Below the pieces are notes generated by a model. That model made no database searches, was not told the origin of the DNA, and was given only the letters and a program-made list of their open reading frames with translations. Both the position numbers and the translations under genes were made by a program. A stretch of DNA of 64,000 bases from Lentisphaera araneosa HTCC2155 (GTDB taxonomy: Bacteria; Verrucomicrobiota; Lentisphaeria; Lentisphaerales; Lentisphaeraceae). Shown piece after piece: positions 26,028 to 64,000 of the stretch. Location: positions 186,001 to 250,000 of the forward strand of contig NZ_ABCK01000003.1 in the NCBI RefSeq assembly GCF_000170755.1, written 5' to 3'. Positions within the stretch are counted from its first letter, which is position 1; each line of letters begins with the position of its first letter.

Positions 26028-26893
26028 GCTGGGTTAAGGGCCGGCAGGTCCTTACAGGGAGCTCGAGGGGCAGCACTCCCTCGTGTGCAAAGCATTCATA
26101 AAGGCAGAGAAGGCCTCAGGATTCAGGATTGTTTTTATATGCGTGCCGAAGGCACGAAGTATAAAGCTCAATAAAATTTCTTAGCCGCCGGGTTAAGGGC
26201 CGGCAGGTCCTTACGGGGAGCTCGAGGGGCAGCGCTCCCTCGTGTGCGAAGCACTCATAAAGGCCAAGAAGGACTCAGGAATCAGGACTCAGAAATGTTT
26301 TATAGACGTGCCGAAGGCACGAAGTATAAGCGAGCCTATGGTTTCAACCATAGGTACCGAGTTTAATATTATCTCCCGTTCTGAAGGAACGGAGCATAGA
26401 CTCAATAAAACTTCTTAGCCGCCGGGTTAAGAGCCGGCAGGTCCTTACGGGGAGCTCGAGGGGCAGCGCTCCCTCGTGTGCGAAGCACTCATAAAGGCCA
26501 AGAAGGACTCAGGAATCAGGACTCAGAAATGTTTTATAGACGTGCCGAAGGCACGAAGTATAAGCGAGCCTATGGTTTCAACCATAGGTACCGAGTTTAA
26601 TATTATCTCCCGTTCTGAAGGAACGGAGCATAGACTCAATAAAACTTCTTAGCCGCCGGGTTAAGAGCCGGCAGGTCCTTACGGGGAGCTCGAGGGGCAG
26701 CGCTCCCTCGTGTGCGAAGCACTCATAAATAGATGGAAGGTGTCTGGGTATCCTATATGCGTGCCGAAGGCACGAAGCATAAAGCTCAATAAAATTTCTT
26801 AGTCGCCAGGTTAAGGGCCGGCAGGTCCTTACGGGGAGCTCGAGGGGCAGCGCTCCCTCGTGTGCGCAGCACTCATAGAGCCACCCACAAGTT
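26028..26893. repeat. Tandem array of five copies of a GC-rich hairpin repeat
   Basis: Five copies of a module of about 90 bases begin near 26028, 26187, 26421, 26655 and 26805, giving spacings of 159, 234, 234 and 150 bases. Copies two and three are near-identical over their full 234 bases. The core contains GGGTTAAGGGCCGGCAGG, CGAGGG pairing with CCCTCG, and GTGC-GAA-GCAC. The 234-base units add further hairpins: GTGCC-GAA-GGCAC, CCTATGGTT paired with AACCATAGG, and CGTTC paired with GAACG. No open frame runs through it. It fills the whole space between the phhB stop and the convergent HAD stop. Confidence 0.92.
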
Positions 26894-30114: not shown

Positions 30115-30929
30115 TAAATTCCTCTAAGTGATTTCGCTCAAAATAAAGCAGGCTCATAAGCTTACAAGCAGACAGTCAACAACAAGTAGCGATTTAGTTA
30201 ACGCGCTTCGCGCTGAGATTACGGCCTTCGGCCTGAGAGATAGAGTTTAGATCGTTCGCAAGCGAACTGAAAGAAGCAAGACCGAGCTAAAGCTCTGAAA
30301 GAGATAAGAATTAAATTCATGGTTCAAGTTTTTTGACCTTCAATTCAAAATTAAGAATTCACCATTTAAAATTATCTTTTGCTGGGAGCGCGGGAATCCT
30401 TCCCGCATTATTTGGATACTTGATTAATGATAATCTCACGCAGAGGCGCGAAGTCGCCGAGTTTGAGTTATTGGGTTATATTTAAAATGACTCTATCTAT
30501 CCTATCAGTTAGATCTGTGATTAAATAAAGTTTTAATTCAATATTCAACTTCAAGTCTTCAAACTCAGCGCGAAGCGCGTTAACTCAGGAACTGGTTCCG
30601 TCAACTCAGCAATGCGTAAACTCAGAAGCTTTGCTTCGTCACCTAAGCTCGGAACGAGCGCTACCTAAACGCATGAAATGCGTGCAGCCTAAGGCTAAGT
30701 CGCTCCCCAAGCGCCGGCGCAACCCTAGGCGAAGCCGTCTCCACCCTCTTACAGCGAAGCGTTCTTTCAGTTCGCTTGCGAACGGTCTTAGCTCTAGTTT
30801 CTGAAGCTCCGCTTCATCACCTATGACAAAAAAATCTCATAAAAGCCCAAATTGCTGTCAATTTGTTACCCTCGACAGTTATTAATCAAGTATTCAACAC
30901 GAAACAAATTTATTAAGAGGAATCACCTT
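30115..30929. repeat. Intergenic spacer packed with short hairpin cassettes
   Basis: An 815-base non-coding region between divergent genes. At least ten short inverted repeats are visible: GCGC-TTC-GCGC (30203-30213), GGCC-TTC-GGCC (30223-30233), GTTCGC-AA-GCGAAC (30254-30267), GAGCT-AA-AGCTC (30284-30295), GCGGGAA-TCC-TTCCCGC (30390-30406). Between about 30565 and 30830 lie GCGC-GAA-GCGC, GGAAC-TG-GTTCC, GAAGC-TTT-GCTTC, GCTCG-GAA-CGAGC, ACGCAT-GAA-ATGCGT, AGCCT-A-AGGCT and GTTCGC-TT-GCGAAC. Units are joined by similar spacers (TGAG, TGAA, or their complements TCACCTAA and CTCA). No open frame or RNA gene was recognised. Confidence 0.85.
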
Positions 30930-33326
30930 ATGCAGTACGGCTATTTTGATGATAAAAACAAAGAATATGTAATTGAACGTCCCGATACACCAACTTCTTG
31001 GAGTAACTACTTAGGTTCCACTCGTTATGGTGCGATTATTACCAATAATGCGGGTGGCTATAGTTTCTTTAAATCAGTGGCTCAAGGTCGCTTCACACGC
31101 TTGCGTTTTAACGCAGTTCCCATGGACCAAGCGGGCCGTTATATTTATATCCATGATGCGGATACAAAAGATTATTGGTCAGCTTCTTGGCAACCAGTGG
31201 CTAAGCCTTTAGACGAATATAAATCTGAATGTCGTCATGGTTCTGCGTACACAAAAATTTCTTCTGATTACTCAGATATTGCGACAAACACAAATTTTTT
31301 CGTGCCACTTGATTCTGATTATGAATGCTGGCGCACAACAGTAAAAAATAATGGCGCCACTAAGCGTACACTGAAAATGTTCACTTACGTCGAATACGGC
31401 TGTAACTGGAATGCTAATGACGACCTCAATAATCTTCAGTATTCACAGTACATCACCGATATGAGCGTTGTTGATGGTATCATTAGCCATGCTTCAAACA
31501 CTAATCTTCCTGAGATGCCGGATAATTTAGAAGAAAAAGACCAGGCGCGTTATACTTTCCTCGGAGCTGTGGGTGTTGAGGTAACGGGCTACGATACAAG
31601 TCGTGAAGCCTTCATTGGCCCTTACCGTAGCTATGCAAACCCGATTGCCGTAGAAAAGGGTGAGTGTTCGAACTCACTTGCGAAAGCTGGCAACCCTTGC
31701 GGTACACTGCAGTTTGAGATTACTCTTGAGCCAGGCGAAGAGAAAGAATTCGCAATCTTCATGGGTATTGGCCGTGCAGAAAAAGAGGGTAAGCAAGTTG
31801 TTGAAAAGTTTGCTAACCTCGATCTCATTGACTCTGAGTTTGAGAAATTGAAAAATTACTGGCATTCAAAGATGTCACAAATGTCCGTACAAACTCCCGA
31901 TGGCGATGTCGACTCCATGCTCAATATGTGGAGTCAATTTAATAGCTTGATGACTTTCTTCTGGTCACGTGCAGCCAGTCTCGTTTATTCAGGAGCTCGC
32001 GATGGTCTCGGTTACCGTGATACGGTACAAGATATGCTCGGTGTGATGCACGCGATTCCAGAACTCGTTCAAGAGCGTTTGGAACTGATGATCACGGGGC
32101 AAGTAGCCAGTGGTGGTGCAATGCCAGTTGTGAAGCCTTTCGCTCATAAGCCTGGTTTTGAACCCGAGCCCAGCCCAGAAGAGTTCCGTTCAGACGATGC
32201 CCTCTGGCTCTTTAACGCCGTTCCTGCTTATGTGAAAGAAACGGGTGACCTCGACTTCTACAAAAAAGTACTTCCTTATGCCGACAAAGGACAAGATACG
32301 ATTTTAGCTCACTTGCGTAGAGCGCTTGAATTCAGCATTAAATACTCAGGAGCTCACGGTTTCCCATGTGGTATGTTAGCTGACTGGAATGACTGTCTCG
32401 AACTCGGTCAGCAGGGCGAAACAGTTTTCGTGGCTTTCCAATTGCGTTATGGCCTCAAAACTTATATCGAAATCTGTCAACTCTTAGAGACTTACGAAGA
32501 CGAAATTACTTGGGCTGTTGCGGAACTCGCAAAACTCGATAAAAACCTCCATGAGCATGCTTGGGATGGTGAATGGTTCCTGCGCGCTTATCGCGATGAT
32601 GGTCTTAAATTCGGTTCGAAAGAAAATGATGAGGGTTCAATCTTCCTTAATACTCAGACTTGGGCGGTGTTCTCTGATCACGCTTCACAAGAAGAAAAAG
32701 TTTCCGCGATGGATGCGGTTCACCGCGAACTGGCAACGGATTACGGCATCATGCTTTGTGCTCCTCCCTTTGTGAATACTGACTACAAAGTGGTACGTGC
32801 GGCACTCTTTAATCCAGGCCTCAAAGAAAATGCCGCTATCTTCACCCATACTCAGGGTTGGACGATTATGGCCGAAGCGATACTCGGACGTGGTGAGCGC
32901 GCTTTCGATTACTACAAATCAACGCTTCCTGCAGCATATAATGACCGTGCCGAGGTCCGCCAGATTGAACCTTATGTTTACTGTCAGTCAACTATTTCAA
33001 AGTTCCACCCCCAAGAAGGAGCTTCAAGACTCCCTTGGTTGACGGGTGCAGCCACATGGGCTTATTACGCAGCGTCGCAGTATATTATAGGTATCCAACC
33101 AGATTATAATGGCTTAAGCATCGATCCTTGTGTTCCAGCTAAATGGGACAAGTTCCAAGTGGAACGTCAATTCCGTGGAGCGACCTACCAGATCTCTGTG
33201 AGCAATCCCAATGGAGTCAATAAAGGCGTCGCCTCAATCAAACTCAATGGCGAAGCCATCGAAGGCCAATGCCTTCCCGTTTGCGCATCAGGTAGCAACA
33301 ACAAAGTTGAAGTCATCATGAGTTAA
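30930..33326 (+). CDS. GH94 disaccharide phosphorylase (cellobiose/chitobiose type)
   Basis: An inverting phosphorylase that splits a beta-linked disaccharide with phosphate to a sugar-1-phosphate plus a monosaccharide. With ATG 30930 the protein has 798 residues, and AAGAGGA lies 8 bases upstream; the open frame further upstream is not translated. The opening MQYGYFDDKNKEYVI, the GYRDTVQDMLG block and the catalytic-acid region GMLADWNDCLELG are diagnostic. Domains are N-terminal beta-sandwich, helical linker, alpha-barrel and C-terminal beta domain. Cellobiose and N,N'-diacetylchitobiose enzymes look alike here, so the substrate is left open. No signal peptide, so intracellular. Confidence 0.93.
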   Translation: MQYGYFDDKNKEYVIERPDTPTSWSNYLGSTRYGAIITNNAGGYSFFKSVAQGRFTRLRFNAVPMDQAGRYIYIHDADTKDYWSASWQPVAKPLDEYKSECRHGSAYTKISSDYSDIATNTNFFVPLDSDYECWRTTVKNNGATKRTLKMFTYVEYGCNWNANDDLNNLQYSQYITDMSVVDGIISHASNTNLPEMPDNLEEKDQARYTFLGAVGVEVTGYDTSREAFIGPYRSYANPIAVEKGECSNSLAKAGNPCGTLQFEITLEPGEEKEFAIFMGIGRAEKEGKQVVEKFANLDLIDSEFEKLKNYWHSKMSQMSVQTPDGDVDSMLNMWSQFNSLMTFFWSRAASLVYSGARDGLGYRDTVQDMLGVMHAIPELVQERLELMITGQVASGGAMPVVKPFAHKPGFEPEPSPEEFRSDDALWLFNAVPAYVKETGDLDFYKKVLPYADKGQDTILAHLRRALEFSIKYSGAHGFPCGMLADWNDCLELGQQGETVFVAFQLRYGLKTYIEICQLLETYEDEITWAVAELAKLDKNLHEHAWDGEWFLRAYRDDGLKFGSKENDEGSIFLNTQTWAVFSDHASQEEKVSAMDAVHRELATDYGIMLCAPPFVNTDYKVVRAALFNPGLKENAAIFTHTQGWTIMAEAILGRGERAFDYYKSTLPAAYNDRAEVRQIEPYVYCQSTISKFHPQEGASRLPWLTGAATWAYYAASQYIIGIQPDYNGLSIDPCVPAKWDKFQVERQFRGATYQISVSNPNGVNKGVASIKLNGEAIEGQCLPVCASGSNNKVEVIMS

Positions 33327-33487
33327 GGCGCTTCGCGCTGAGGGAGCGGCTTCGCCTAAGGGAGCGCTCGTTCCGTCAACTCAGGAATTTGTTCCGTCAA
33401 TTCAACGAAGCGCGAGGACTCCCTACACTCCCTAAGGTCTGCGGCCACTCCCTAAGGCCTACGGCCGCAACTCAAGCGCGTAGAGTT
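33327..33487. repeat. Hairpin-cassette cluster between the phosphorylase and manC
   Basis: Starts directly at the phosphorylase stop. Contains GCGC-TTC-GCGC followed by TGAG, AGCG-GCTTC-GC variants, GGAA-TTT-GTTCC, and GGTCT-GC-GGCC and GGCC-TAC-GGCC, joined by repeated ACTCCCTAA and CAACTCA spacers. Same style as the array at 30.1-30.9 kb. Non-coding. Confidence 0.75.
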
Positions 33488-58364: not shown

Positions 58365-58757
58365 TTATTTTGTGTAAATAATTCGTTCATATTTAAGTTT
58401 TAGATGACTTCCGAAATTGATAAGATAAGCGACTGATAATCCAGTAGCTTTTAGGTAATTGAAAGTTTGTGCACGGTGTTCGTAGTCAAGTTTTTTGACG
58501 GCCTTGATTTCAATGATGATTTTATCATAAACAAAAAATTCGGGAATATATTTCTTCTGTAGTTGAGTGCCTTTATAAATTAATTTTATTTCTTTTTGTG
58601 CATCAAAGGTGATGGATTGAGAGCTGAATTCGAGTTCGAGACATTCTTGTTAGACCGCTTCTAAAAAACCTGGGCCAATTTCATTGTATACCTCAAAGCA
58701 TGCTCCTAATATTTTATACCCTTCATCTTTATATAAAAACTCTATGTCAATTTCCCT
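58365..58757 (-). pseudogene. GxxExxY protein pseudogene
   Basis: The minus strand reads, in one frame, EFLYKDEGYKILGACFEVYNEIGPGFLEAV, then TAA, then QECLELEF...KKYIPEFFVYDKIIIEIKAVKKLDYEHRAQTFNYLKATGLSVAYLINFGSHLKLKYERIIYTK and a normal stop. The stop codon at about 58648-58650 stands exactly where the tyrosine of the GxxExxY signature belongs. The expected start codon is AGG (58755-58757). Otherwise the frame is intact, so the gene was lost recently. The family is a PD-(D/E)XK-like group of unknown role. Confidence 0.88.
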
Positions 58758-62154: not shown

Positions 62155-62785
62155 GTCTTCTTTACTAAGCGATTTCCTGTTTCTAAATTTTAGAATTCAT
62201 CTCTCGTCCATAACTTTCAACTCAGCGCTAAGCGCGTTTCCTTAGCACGAAGTGCGTTTTCTCAGCCTGACCTTACCAAAATTATTTAATCTTTTTTAAT
62301 TAATTGATGACGACTTCGACGATTTTATAGGGGCTAAAGCTCTGAAAGAAGCATGAGTTTAACCACAGATCATGCAGATTTAACTTTTATACTTAGCAGG
62401 GTCTGACCAATGGCGCTTGCGAAGTAGGAAAATAAAATCTGTGGTAGAGGTTTTTGCTTTCATTCAAATCGAGAATTAAAGATTCATAATTATTTTATTT
62501 TGTGAAAACTAGGCAGGCTCCGCATGAAAAATGGAGCGGGCATTTTTCATTAACTTTGTGCTTGATGACTACTTGTGACTATAGCTTGTTTTAAATGGCA
62601 ATGAAATAGGTGGATATTAAAAAAATATGATTATCTAATTCATACTTAAGTTTGTGATTAATCAAAAAGCGCAAATCGCGTAAGGATTAAGGGTATAATT
62701 AATTGATAATTATTTTTTGTGAGGGGCATACTTTTTGGAGAGGTGTTTTTTATGTAATAAGTTTAGGTAAATGAGGAGCATGCAA
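62155..62785. repeat. Intergenic region with hairpin relics, a CCACAGAT element and a 10-bp stem hairpin
   Basis: A 631-base non-coding gap between divergent genes. 62220-62275 has GCGC-TAA-GCGC and GCAC-GAA-GTGC in the usual CTCAGC/TTAGC setting. ACCACAGAT (62361-62369) and ATCTGTGGT (62437-62445) form a wide inverted repeat. ATGAAAAATG and CATTTTTCAT (62524-62550) form a perfect 10-bp stem around GAGCGGG. The promoters of wbuC and the stress protein must lie here too. Confidence 0.75.
62703..62732 (+). promoter_or_regulatory. Possible sigma-70 promoter of the stress protein gene
   Basis: TTGATA (62703-62708) and CATACT (62727-62732) are 18 bases apart, about 50 bases before the start codon. 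By-eye assignment. Confidence 0.35.
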
Positions 62786-63667
62786 ATGAAAAATATAGAA
62801 ACCATAATTGTTGGCGTTACTTCAAAGAAACAATTCAGTTTAGCTGTGCGAGAAGCGCAAAAGTTAAGTGAACTCTTCGGAGTGCTGATCTACCCCGTAC
62901 ATATCATTGAGCCGCTGAGTGTGAAATTACTCCACCCCACATCTACTGATGAGACAATAGATAAAATGATGATGAAACTGAGTGATGAAATACAGCGACT
63001 CTACCCCGATTATGGACATCATAAAATTGAGGCACCACTCATCAGTGTGGGTAATACGGCAAAAGAGCTTGCGCATATCGCAAAAAAAATTGGTAATTCA
63101 CTCATTGTTGTGGGGCGTCATAGTAGTGGTTTTAGGCATATGCTTGGCAAGAGTCATGCCGAACGCTTAGTGAAATACGCCGAGGGACCCGTGTGGATTC
63201 ATCCCGATAAAGCTTTTACTGGCATCCCCAAGAAAATTTTATGCCCCGTAGATTTTACCACGTCATGTCAAAAAGCGGCGGCGGAAGCCTTATCTTTTGC
63301 GGAACAAACAGGGGCGAAACTCGAGTTTGTGCATGTGCTTCCCGAAGTGATCAATTACTCAGATTTTGATGGCTACCTTAGCACAAATAGTGGGGTGACA
63401 GAAATTACCGATGACGTTTTCCGGAAAGAGGCTGAGACGCAGTTCCGTCGCCTCTACAATTTATTGAATATCGATGAAGAACGCCACCCTCAGCACGTGC
63501 GTTTCGGTGATCCCTCCGCACAGATTCATATTTTGGCAAAAGAAATGAAAGCGGATTTGATTGTCGTGAGTTCCTCCTCCAATCATAAACTCGAAAAGAT
63601 GATTACGGGTAGCACAGTACGCCACATCATTCATGATGCTAAAGTTGATGTCCTCGTTGTGAAATAG
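62786..63667 (+). CDS. Tandem universal stress protein (two UspA domains)
   Basis: About 293 residues with two UspA folds, roughly 1-145 and 146-293. The first contains IIVGVTSKKQFSLAVREA and LIVVGRHSSG, the second ILCPVDFTTSCQKAAAEALSFAEQTGAKLEFVHVLPEV, then LIVVSSSSNHKLEKMITGSTVRHIIHDAKVDVLVV. The second domain ends with the ATP-binding G-2x-G-9x-G-like pattern altered (ITGSTVRHI). ATG 62786 has GAGGAG 7 bases upstream and is preferred over ATG 62771 and 62780. A hairpin array begins at the base after the stop. Confidence 0.9.
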   Translation: MKNIETIIVGVTSKKQFSLAVREAQKLSELFGVLIYPVHIIEPLSVKLLHPTSTDETIDKMMMKLSDEIQRLYPDYGHHKIEAPLISVGNTAKELAHIAKKIGNSLIVVGRHSSGFRHMLGKSHAERLVKYAEGPVWIHPDKAFTGIPKKILCPVDFTTSCQKAAAEALSFAEQTGAKLEFVHVLPEVINYSDFDGYLSTNSGVTEITDDVFRKEAETQFRRLYNLLNIDEERHPQHVRFGDPSAQIHILAKEMKADLIVVSSSSNHKLEKMITGSTVRHIIHDAKVDVLVVK

Positions 63668-63927
63668 TTTACGCGCTTCGCGCTGAGTTTACGCGCTTCG
63701 CGCTGAGTTTACGCGCTTCGCGCTGAGAATACACGCTAGGTGCTGAGTTTACGCGCTTCGCGCTGAGTTGACGCACTGCGTGCTGAGTTTACGCGCTTCG
63801 CGCTGAGTTTACGCGCTTCGCGCTGAGTTGACGCACTGCGTGCTGAGTTTACGCGCTTCGCGCTGAGAATACGCACTGCGTGCTGAGTTGACGCACTACG
63901 CGCTGAGTTTACGCGCTATGCGCTGAG
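63668..63927. repeat. Thirteen tandem 20-bp hairpin units
   Basis: Thirteen head-to-tail units of exactly 20 bases. Eight carry or equal the consensus core ACGCGCTTCGCGCTGAG. The others have ACGCACTGCGTGCTGAG (three), ACACGCTAGGTGCTGAG, ACGCACTACGCGCTGAG or ACGCGCTATGCGCTGAG. Each unit is a hairpin with a 4-bp stem and 3-base loop; in the GCAC variants both arms change together (GCAC/GTGC). The first three bases of the unit vary (TTT, TTG, AAT). Non-coding. Confidence 0.95.
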
Positions 63928-63945
63928 TTATTATAGGAGGGGAAT

Positions 63946-64000
63946 ATGAATTTTGAAGATTTAGAAATTTGGAAGCGCTCGGTGAAACTGAGTATTGCTA
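63946..64000 (+). CDS. Four-helix-bundle protein (23S rRNA IVP/Avd-like), partial
   Basis: An ATG with a strong AGGAGG ribosome site 5 to 7 bases upstream opens MNFEDLEIWKRSVKLSIA and runs off the right edge. MxFxDLxxWKxSxxL is the typical start of the four-helix-bundle family, related to intervening-sequence proteins of 23S rRNA and to Avd of diversity-generating retroelements. Only 18 residues are visible, so the call rests on the opening alone. Confidence 0.75.
   Translation, partial: MNFEDLEIWKRSVKLSIA

What the first reader, a model, noticed from the sequence alone, without database searches (positions are those of the whole stretch)
63668..63927. Thirteen 20-bp hairpin units with compensatory changes
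Every unit is exactly 20 bases, about two helical turns, so all hairpins face the same side of DNA. The GCAC...GTGC variants change both arms together and recur in alternation with the GCGC units, which implies that pairing is selected, or that whole units are copied from other arrays. The array lies between a stress-protein stop and the ribosome site of a four-helix-bundle gene. It could be a transcription buffer, a protein-binding comb or an RNA of repeated hairpins. This is the clearest candidate for an undescribed element here.
Basis: partly seen in the sequence, partly recalled or inferred. Interest (0 to 1): 0.78.

Follow-up and report, generated by a model that had tools for sequence, protein, structure and literature searches.

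The report
Tandem DNA mini-hairpins around four-helix-bundle genes
The 13 tiny hairpins belong to a genus-wide family of interchangeable DNA hairpin modules joined by a constant 11-letter linker, and such arrays bracket every member of one puzzling small gene family in this genome, a gene family that in many other bacteria is also bracketed by mirrored short repeats.

Summary
In detail: 13 units of exactly 20 bp at 63668-63927, directly after a universal-stress-protein stop codon and before a TIGR02436/PF05635 four-helix-bundle (4HB) gene. It is not a one-off. The genome (a Lentisphaera, very likely L. araneosa) has 186 matches to the tandem-pair pattern (reversed control 0), and two other Lentisphaera genomes carry related arrays. 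The constant part is an 11-nt linker (CTGAGTTNACG, CTTAGGTNGCG, CTGAAAGANCG and others). Between linkers sit interchangeable palindromes: 88 distinct short inserts, 83% of interior positions paired (arm-swap control 52%). Three-nt loops are usually C(GNA)G, the extra-stable DNA mini-hairpin loop, mostly on the non-coding strand. Periods run 16-24 bp, so helical phasing is not the rule, and RNA folding is no better than shuffles.

All four 4HB genes in this genome abut arrays. In 29 Verrucomicrobiota loci and 26 loci from unrelated genomes, PF05635 genes are bracketed by inverted, often 7-8-nt tandem repeats; toxin-gene controls are not. Best reading: a DNA-level mini-hairpin repeat system that hosts 4HB elements, an intergenic counterpart of the 23S rRNA intervening sequence. 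The descriptive part is firm; the mechanism is inferred.

The parts
63668..63927 (+). Array of 13 tandem 20-bp units (linker CTGAGTTNACG or close variant + palindrome GCGCTTCGCGC / GCACTGCGTGC and variants)
63665..63667 (+). Stop codon TAG of the universal stress protein gene; the first hairpin (63673-63683) starts 5 nt after it
62771..63667 (+). Universal-stress-protein-like gene (298 aa) whose 3' end carries the array; orthologues at 86-88% identity in two congeners
63928..63934 (+). Distal end of the array (GCGCTGAGTTATTAT ends here); the same terminal sequence recurs at the end of the second array beyond the window, then both diverge
63935..63942 (+). Ribosome-binding-site-like AGGAGGGG of the four-helix-bundle gene
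   Evidence: sequence
63946..64000 (+). Start of the PF05635/TIGR02436 four-helix-bundle gene (112 aa, continues past the window to G000:C3:250284), followed directly after its stop by a second array of 20 units
62221..62257 (-). Two tandem units of the same family (ACGCGCTTAGCGCTGAG, ACGCACTTCGTGCTAAG)
33326..33366 (+). Hairpin units directly after a stop codon, with mosaic linkers (CTGAGGGAGCG, CTAAGGGAGCG)
30201..30217 (+). Single unit ACGCGCTTCGCGCTGAG followed by other hairpin-linker modules
30564..30651 (-). Short mosaic array of family A modules (GCGCTTCGCGC, GGAACCAGTTCC, GCATTGC, GAAGCAAAGCTTC)

Best explanation
The array is a tandem amplification of DNA mini-hairpin modules: an 11-nt linker that often contains a stop codon, plus a short palindrome closed by the linker's own G and C and usually capped by a C(GNA)G triloop. 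It belongs to a Lentisphaera-wide repeat system that sits at gene 3' ends and between genes, and in which PF05635 four-helix-bundle genes are embedded; with its bracketing arrays the 4HB gene is an intergenic counterpart of the 23S rRNA intervening sequence (4HB ORF inside inverted repeats). Proposed working (inferred): the palindromes fold on single-stranded DNA (template strand of the upstream gene), units are gained, lost and shuffled by slippage and recombination through the shared linkers, fold-back copying keeps the two arms complementary, linker stop codons make the array harmless at the end of a gene, and the 4HB gene uses the arrays as its landing and recombination ground. Shown: module anatomy, genus-wide spread, pairing excess, loop bias, stop-codon placement, 4HB bracketing here and in other phyla. 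Inferred: single-strand folding, fold-back copying, recombination as the route of the 4HB gene, any role of the 4HB protein.
For: Genome-wide spread: 121 exact units and 186 dimers in the own genome, 0 in the reversed-pattern control; arrays in a second congener and in Lentisphaera marina, dimers in no genome outside the genus among 289 of the phylum. Module anatomy: 436 units, 93 distinct inserts, the same palindromes under several linkers. Pairing: 203/245 interior positions paired on 88 distinct inserts, arm-swap mean 0.52 (max 0.62), shuffle mean 0.27; sliding the partner by one base drops pairing from 0.85 to 0.14-0.20. Loops: 27 of 41 distinct triloop hairpins are GNA on one strand (8/64 expected), 38 of 41 closed by C-G, 265 of 306 copies on the complement strand; GNA loops with G-C pairs give extraordinarily stable DNA mini-hairpins (PMC4686876). 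Stop codons: many arrays begin 4-10 nt after a same-strand stop. 4HB link: 4 of 4 own 4HB genes abut arrays versus 7 of 772 ORFs; three of the five examined have the same linker family inverted on both sides. PF05635 flanks elsewhere: inverted 7-mers 16.4 vs 7.1 direct, control ParE 2.8, p=2e-9; tandem repeats in 24/58 flanks vs 0/46; genomes of other groups 28/52 flanks. Same site in three species: array+4HB+array, a different 4HB gene in heptamer repeats, or arrays alone.
Against: Most arrays have no 4HB gene beside them (about 69 arrays, 5 with 4HB in the sampled loci), so the arrays do not need it locally. The 4HB of this window has direct, not inverted, arrays immediately on both sides; an inverted array lies one step further. 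One of the 4HB genes in the congeners (L318) has no clear repeats. GxxExxY (PF13366) genes are also bracketed by inverted repeats, so 4HB is not unique. The loops are related by descent, so 27/41 overstates independence. Standard DNA energies give the 4-bp hairpins only about -2 to -4 kcal/mol and the 2-bp ones zero. No function is known for these 4HB proteins.
Confidence: 0.5

Rival explanations
1. RNA-level element: the arrays are 3' UTR hairpins that end transcription, block 3' exonucleases or insulate neighbouring genes, and pairing is selected in RNA.
For: Many arrays start right after a stop codon in the gene's own direction, and orthologous genes in two species keep arrays at their 3' ends although the hairpins differ.
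Against: The array folds worse than dinucleotide shuffles (z +3.92); no U-tract terminator; the stable GNA loops lie mostly on the non-coding strand; stop-adjacent hairpins are not general: about 4% of genes (14 of 332); many arrays lie away from any same-strand stop or in the opposite orientation.
Confidence: 0.17
2. REP/BIME-type palindromes mobilised by REP-associated tyrosine transposases (RAYT).
For: Short extragenic palindromes in mosaics; the genome has 16 Y1_Tnp matches; one linker variant reads CGTCAACTCAG on the complement, and CGTC-tagged REPs exist (PMC3733652).
Against: None of the eight Y1_Tnp loci fetched has a unit within about 1.5 kb; [quoted passage not shown]
Confidence: 0.1
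3. Neutral satellite: slippage-prone tandem repeats that spread without function, with the 4HB link only reflecting shared gene-poor, recombination-prone islands.
For: Broken-pair units are amplified as readily (nine GCCCTTCGTGC units in G195); hairpin content turns over between species; linker stop codons would make arrays tolerated at gene ends, as argued for TAACTGA heptamers (PMC4679880).
Against: Does not explain the pairing excess across unrelated stems, the GNA bias, matched inverted linkers on both sides of 4HB genes, or the inverted repeats around PF05635 genes in other phyla while ParE controls have none.
Confidence: 0.18
4. Protein-binding comb: units at 20 bp place binding sites on one face of the helix.
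For: Exact 20-bp spacing in this and several other arrays.
Against: Other arrays of the same linker families use 16-24 bp, often mixed within one array; what stays constant is the 11-nt linker.
Confidence: 0.05

Closest known systems
23S rRNA intervening sequences (IVS) with S23p ORF, e.g. Coxiella burnetii (PMC4990558)
   Same: A PF05635 four-helix-bundle ORF bracketed by inverted repeats that can form a stem; 4HB protein of the XCC0516 (2GSC) type.
   Different: Lies between protein genes, not in 23S rRNA; the bracket consists of tandem mini-hairpin arrays of up to dozens of units, not one ~28-bp terminal repeat.
REP / BIME palindromes (GTAG and CGTC super-families, PMC3733652)
   Same: Short extragenic palindromes in mosaic groups.
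   Different: Head-to-tail tandem arrays, constant linker with interchangeable stems, no RAYT neighbour found among eight loci.
Intergenic heptamer repeats: TAACTGA (PMC4679880), GGGAATC/GGGGATT (PMC4692102), cyanobacterial STRR (own knowledge)
   Same: Head-to-tail short repeats between genes, often carrying stop codons, some as convergent inverted pairs; heptamers of this kind flank 4HB genes in other genomes.
   Different: Here the unit is 16-24 bp with an internal palindrome; neither paper mentions S23p or four-helix-bundle genes.
d(GCGNAGC) extra-stable DNA mini-hairpins (PMC4686876, citing Hirao 1994 and Yoshizawa 1997)
   Same: Loop GNA closed by C-G with a G-C stem; the shortest natural insert here is GCGAAGC on the complement strand (51 copies).
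   Different: Described there as short DNA fragments used in aptamers; here the motif recurs as a natural tandem array.
Diversity-generating retroelement Avd proteins
   Same: Homologous four-helix-bundle fold (PMC10053308).
   Different: Reverse transcriptase and template/variable repeats were not searched for here.

Membership tests
23S rRNA IVS with S23p ORF | PF05635/S23p ORF | tested here: met
   PF05635 102 bits, TIGR02436 104 bits, PDB 2GSC E=9e-12
23S rRNA IVS with S23p ORF | Terminal inverted repeats able to form a stem | tested here: inconclusive
   Matched inverted linkers on both sides in C20, C5 and G195; in the window's own locus the adjacent arrays are direct and the inverted one lies further out
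23S rRNA IVS with S23p ORF | Inserted in 23S rRNA (helix 25 or 45) | tested here: not met
   Intergenic between protein genes; no Rfam family reaches its gathering score in the window
23S rRNA IVS with S23p ORF | Excised by RNase III | not testable with these tools
   needs RNA work
REP / BIME (GTAG or CGTC) | GTAG or CGTC tag next to a conserved stem | tested here: not met
   Linker is constant and stems vary; CGTC only in one linker variant, CGTA common
REP / BIME (GTAG or CGTC) | Mostly head-to-head or tail-to-tail pairs | tested here: not met
   Head-to-tail arrays of up to 36 units
REP / BIME (GTAG or CGTC) | RAYT gene flanked by the repeat (GTAG type) | tested here: not met
   8 of the 16 Y1_Tnp loci scanned, no units; the other 8 were not fetched
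Heptamer tandem repeats (STRR/LSSR) | Unit of about 7 nt | tested here: not met
   Unit 20 nt here, 16-24 in the family
Intrinsic terminator arrays | GC stem followed by a U-tract | tested here: not met
   Only one terminator-like site in the region, inside the 4HB gene
Diversity-generating retroelement | Reverse transcriptase with TR/VR pair near the 4HB gene | not tested
   No RT search was made

The most novel reading that the evidence does not exclude
PF05635 four-helix-bundle genes define a widespread element class: a small gene bracketed by mirrored short tandem repeats, of which the 23S rRNA intervening sequence is the rRNA-resident special case. The repeats are its landing and propagation sites, and in Lentisphaera they evolved into arrays of DNA mini-hairpins with interchangeable stems that the 4HB protein (perhaps with a host enzyme) recognises by structure rather than by sequence.
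Probability: 0.3. Interest if true: 0.85.

Novelty: new variant of a known kind. Interest (0 to 1): 0.62.

Why it matters
Proteins of the S23p/TIGR02436 family are found in many bacterial phyla and have no known function; a reproducible genomic signature (mirrored short repeats on both sides, in unrelated groups) turns that into a testable question about mobility or nucleic-acid binding and joins the rRNA intervening sequences with a much larger intergenic population. The Lentisphaera arrays also show a natural repeat built on the extra-stable DNA GNA mini-hairpin, with dozens of different stems, which makes it possible to ask whether paired substitutions in palindromes come from selection or from fold-back copying.

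Tried and rejected
Helical-phasing comb: rejected by variable periods. RNA hairpin chain or terminator: RNA fold z +3.9, no U-tract. General stop-adjacent hairpins in this genome: only 14 of 332 genes. RAYT-driven REP: no units beside eight Y1_Tnp loci. Spread of the exact repeat outside the genus: trimer scan of about 85,000 species genomes found none (own and near genomes may be left out there); A-linker dimers in other genera are mostly unrelated tandem repeats, the Mesorhizobium 22-bp repeat being a look-alike. Viral contigs: no dimer, four unrelated A-linker pairs. Rfam: nothing. A first flank test that relied on guessed ORF starts was replaced by one based on the domain match. Integron attC and CRISPR were considered and set aside on layout alone (20-bp units without intervening cassettes; recurring palindromic inserts).

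Full report
What was checked. The window holds 13 consecutive 20-base units at 63668-63927. Eight units have G-C at the variable pair, three A-T, one G-T and one A-C; eleven are fully paired. The core is found 17 times in the window at up to 3 mismatches against 0.04 expected. The upstream gene is a universal stress protein (Usp domain); the downstream gene is a TIGR02436/PF05635 four-helix-bundle protein related to XCC0516 (PDB 2GSC). The organism is a Lentisphaera: records of Lentisphaera marina carry the same linker and hairpin layout, and two congeners are held as G195 and G212. The 6.02-Mb size fits L. araneosa; that name is my inference.

Spread. In the own genome the unit pattern has 121 exact matches and the dimer pattern 186 matches with up to 2 mismatches, with none for the reversed control. 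Arrays of 2 to 36 units lie on several contigs. Among 289 genomes of the phylum, only the own genome and one congener have the dimer. No trimer was found in the genome collection, which may leave out near relatives.

Anatomy. TRF and direct reading of about 1.7 Mb show that the 20-bp array is one case of a broader design: a constant 11-12-nt linker (A CTGAGTTNACG, B CTTAGGTNGCG, C CTGAAAGANCG, D CTGCAAGATCG, E CTCAAAGTATCG) alternating with short palindromes. The last G of one linker and the first C of the next close the hairpin. I extracted 436 units with 93 distinct inserts; several palindromes (GCACTTCGTGC, GCTTCGC, GCACTACGTGC, GCTACGC, GGCAACAAGTTGCC) recur under different linkers. Periods follow insert length (16-24 bp), so equal helical facing holds only inside homogeneous arrays.

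Pairing. On the 88 distinct inserts of 7-16 nt, 203 of 245 interior positions are paired; swapping 3' arms among inserts of equal length gives 0.52 on average and never more than 0.62 in 500 trials; shuffles give 0.27. For 11-nt inserts, pairing is 0.85 in register and 0.14-0.31 when slid. Pairing is therefore kept across unrelated stems. Broken pairs exist and are amplified: eleven A-C and eight G-T units at the variable pair in the own genome and nine C-T units in G195. So either selection is loose, or pairing is restored by a copying mechanism such as fold-back template switching (a mechanism known to me; not shown here).

Loops and strand. Of 41 distinct fully paired inserts with a three-nt loop, 38 have a C-G closing pair and 27 have GNA on one strand (8 of 64 triplets expected; p=2e-15 if independent, which overstates it). 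By copies, 265 of 306 have GNA on the strand complementary to the linker as written. DNA hairpins with GNA loops and at least two G-C pairs are extraordinarily stable, GCGAAGC melting at 78 C (PMC4686876); the shortest common insert here is exactly that sequence. For arrays that follow a gene in its own direction, the complement is the template strand, so the mRNA would carry the other loop. RNA folding of the array is worse than shuffles (z +3.92). Both point to DNA rather than RNA, which is inference.

Place. Many arrays start 4-10 nt after the stop codon of a same-strand gene. The linkers contain TGA, TAG or TAA, and in some genes the last codons and the stop are array sequence (L110, L114). 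This gives a simple reason why arrays are tolerated at gene ends, as was argued for TAACTGA heptamers (PMC4679880). Stop-adjacent hairpins are not a general habit of the genome: 14 of 332 genes.

The 4HB gene. All four PF05635 genes of the genome have an array starting within a few nt of their stop, against 7 of 772 ORFs in an unbiased 1.03-Mb sample. In three of the five loci first examined (C20, C5, G195) the arrays on the two sides are inverted and of the same linker family. In G195 further 4HB genes carry C-type or new-type linkers or heptamers; in G212 two of three have heptamer or octamer repeats. Across 29 usable Verrucomicrobiota loci the near flanks share inverted 7-mers (mean 16.4, direct 7.1, far flanks 4.1), while ParE-toxin loci do not (2.8; p=2e-9), and 24 of 58 flanks contain tandem repeats, mostly of 7-8 nt, against 0 of 46. 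In 26 loci from genomes of other groups the result repeats (23.3 vs 8.7, p=1e-4; 28 of 52 flanks tandem; examples). PF13366 (GxxExxY) genes are also bracketed by inverted repeats but without tandem units. No paper found in the library links PF05635 to such repeats.

Same site in three species. After the Usp stop, the own genome has array, 4HB, array, spacer, inverted array; G212 has a different TIGR02436 gene inside TTTGAAT-type heptamers; G195 has only arrays. The two arrays around the window's 4HB gene end with the same GCGCTGAGTTATTAT and then diverge, as if the array had been duplicated when the gene came in. That is an inference from one locus.

Explanation and limits. I propose a DNA mini-hairpin repeat system that hosts 4HB elements, comparable to the rRNA intervening sequence, where an S23p ORF lies within inverted termini (PMC4990558). 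Whether the 4HB protein acts on the repeats is unknown; most arrays have no such gene beside them.

Noticed in passing
L281-L310 (PF13366 loci); own genome C34:23886, C9:55643, C7:89620: GxxExxY (PDDEXK_3) genes are also bracketed by inverted repeats (12.9 vs 5.0 shared 7-mers, p=5e-5) but without tandem heptamers, so 4HB genes are not the only small genes with mirrored flanks.
   Followed up: partly
window 58380-58727 (-): A PF13366 match with one TAA inside: probably a decayed GxxExxY gene.
   Followed up: no
L113 12295-12525 (G195): Array of GCCCTTCGTGC units in which the same inner pair is broken in nine copies, i.e. an unpaired variant was amplified.
   Followed up: yes
L037, L032 (contig C34): Several arrays end in the same dispersed sequence TTAGTGTAGATCAGTGAAGATTAGTGG; contig C34 is an island of arrays with nucleotidyltransferase-like, HTH-like, GxxExxY and ATPase-like genes.
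   Followed up: no
window 26148-26729: A 234-bp unit repeated 2.5 times (97% match), unrelated to the hairpin arrays as far as looked at.
   Followed up: no
L168, L173, L148, L155, L159, L162 (Mesorhizobium): A 22-bp tandem repeat CTGAGTTAACG CCCAAGGGCGC with the same linker letters and an internal palindrome; look-alike or distant relative.
   Followed up: partly
L031 12390-12830 (-) and L032 15999-16322 (+): Long open frames made wholly or mostly of array sequence; annotation pipelines may call them as genes.
   Followed up: no
L276 (G212): A second TIGR02436 gene sits at the same Usp 3' site in inverted TTTGAAT-type heptamers, showing a different 4HB element at the same locus in a congener.
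   Followed up: yes
L255/L264 (Mesorhizobium), several G303 loci: PF05635 genes broken by frameshifts or stops, suggesting frequent gain and decay.
   Followed up: no
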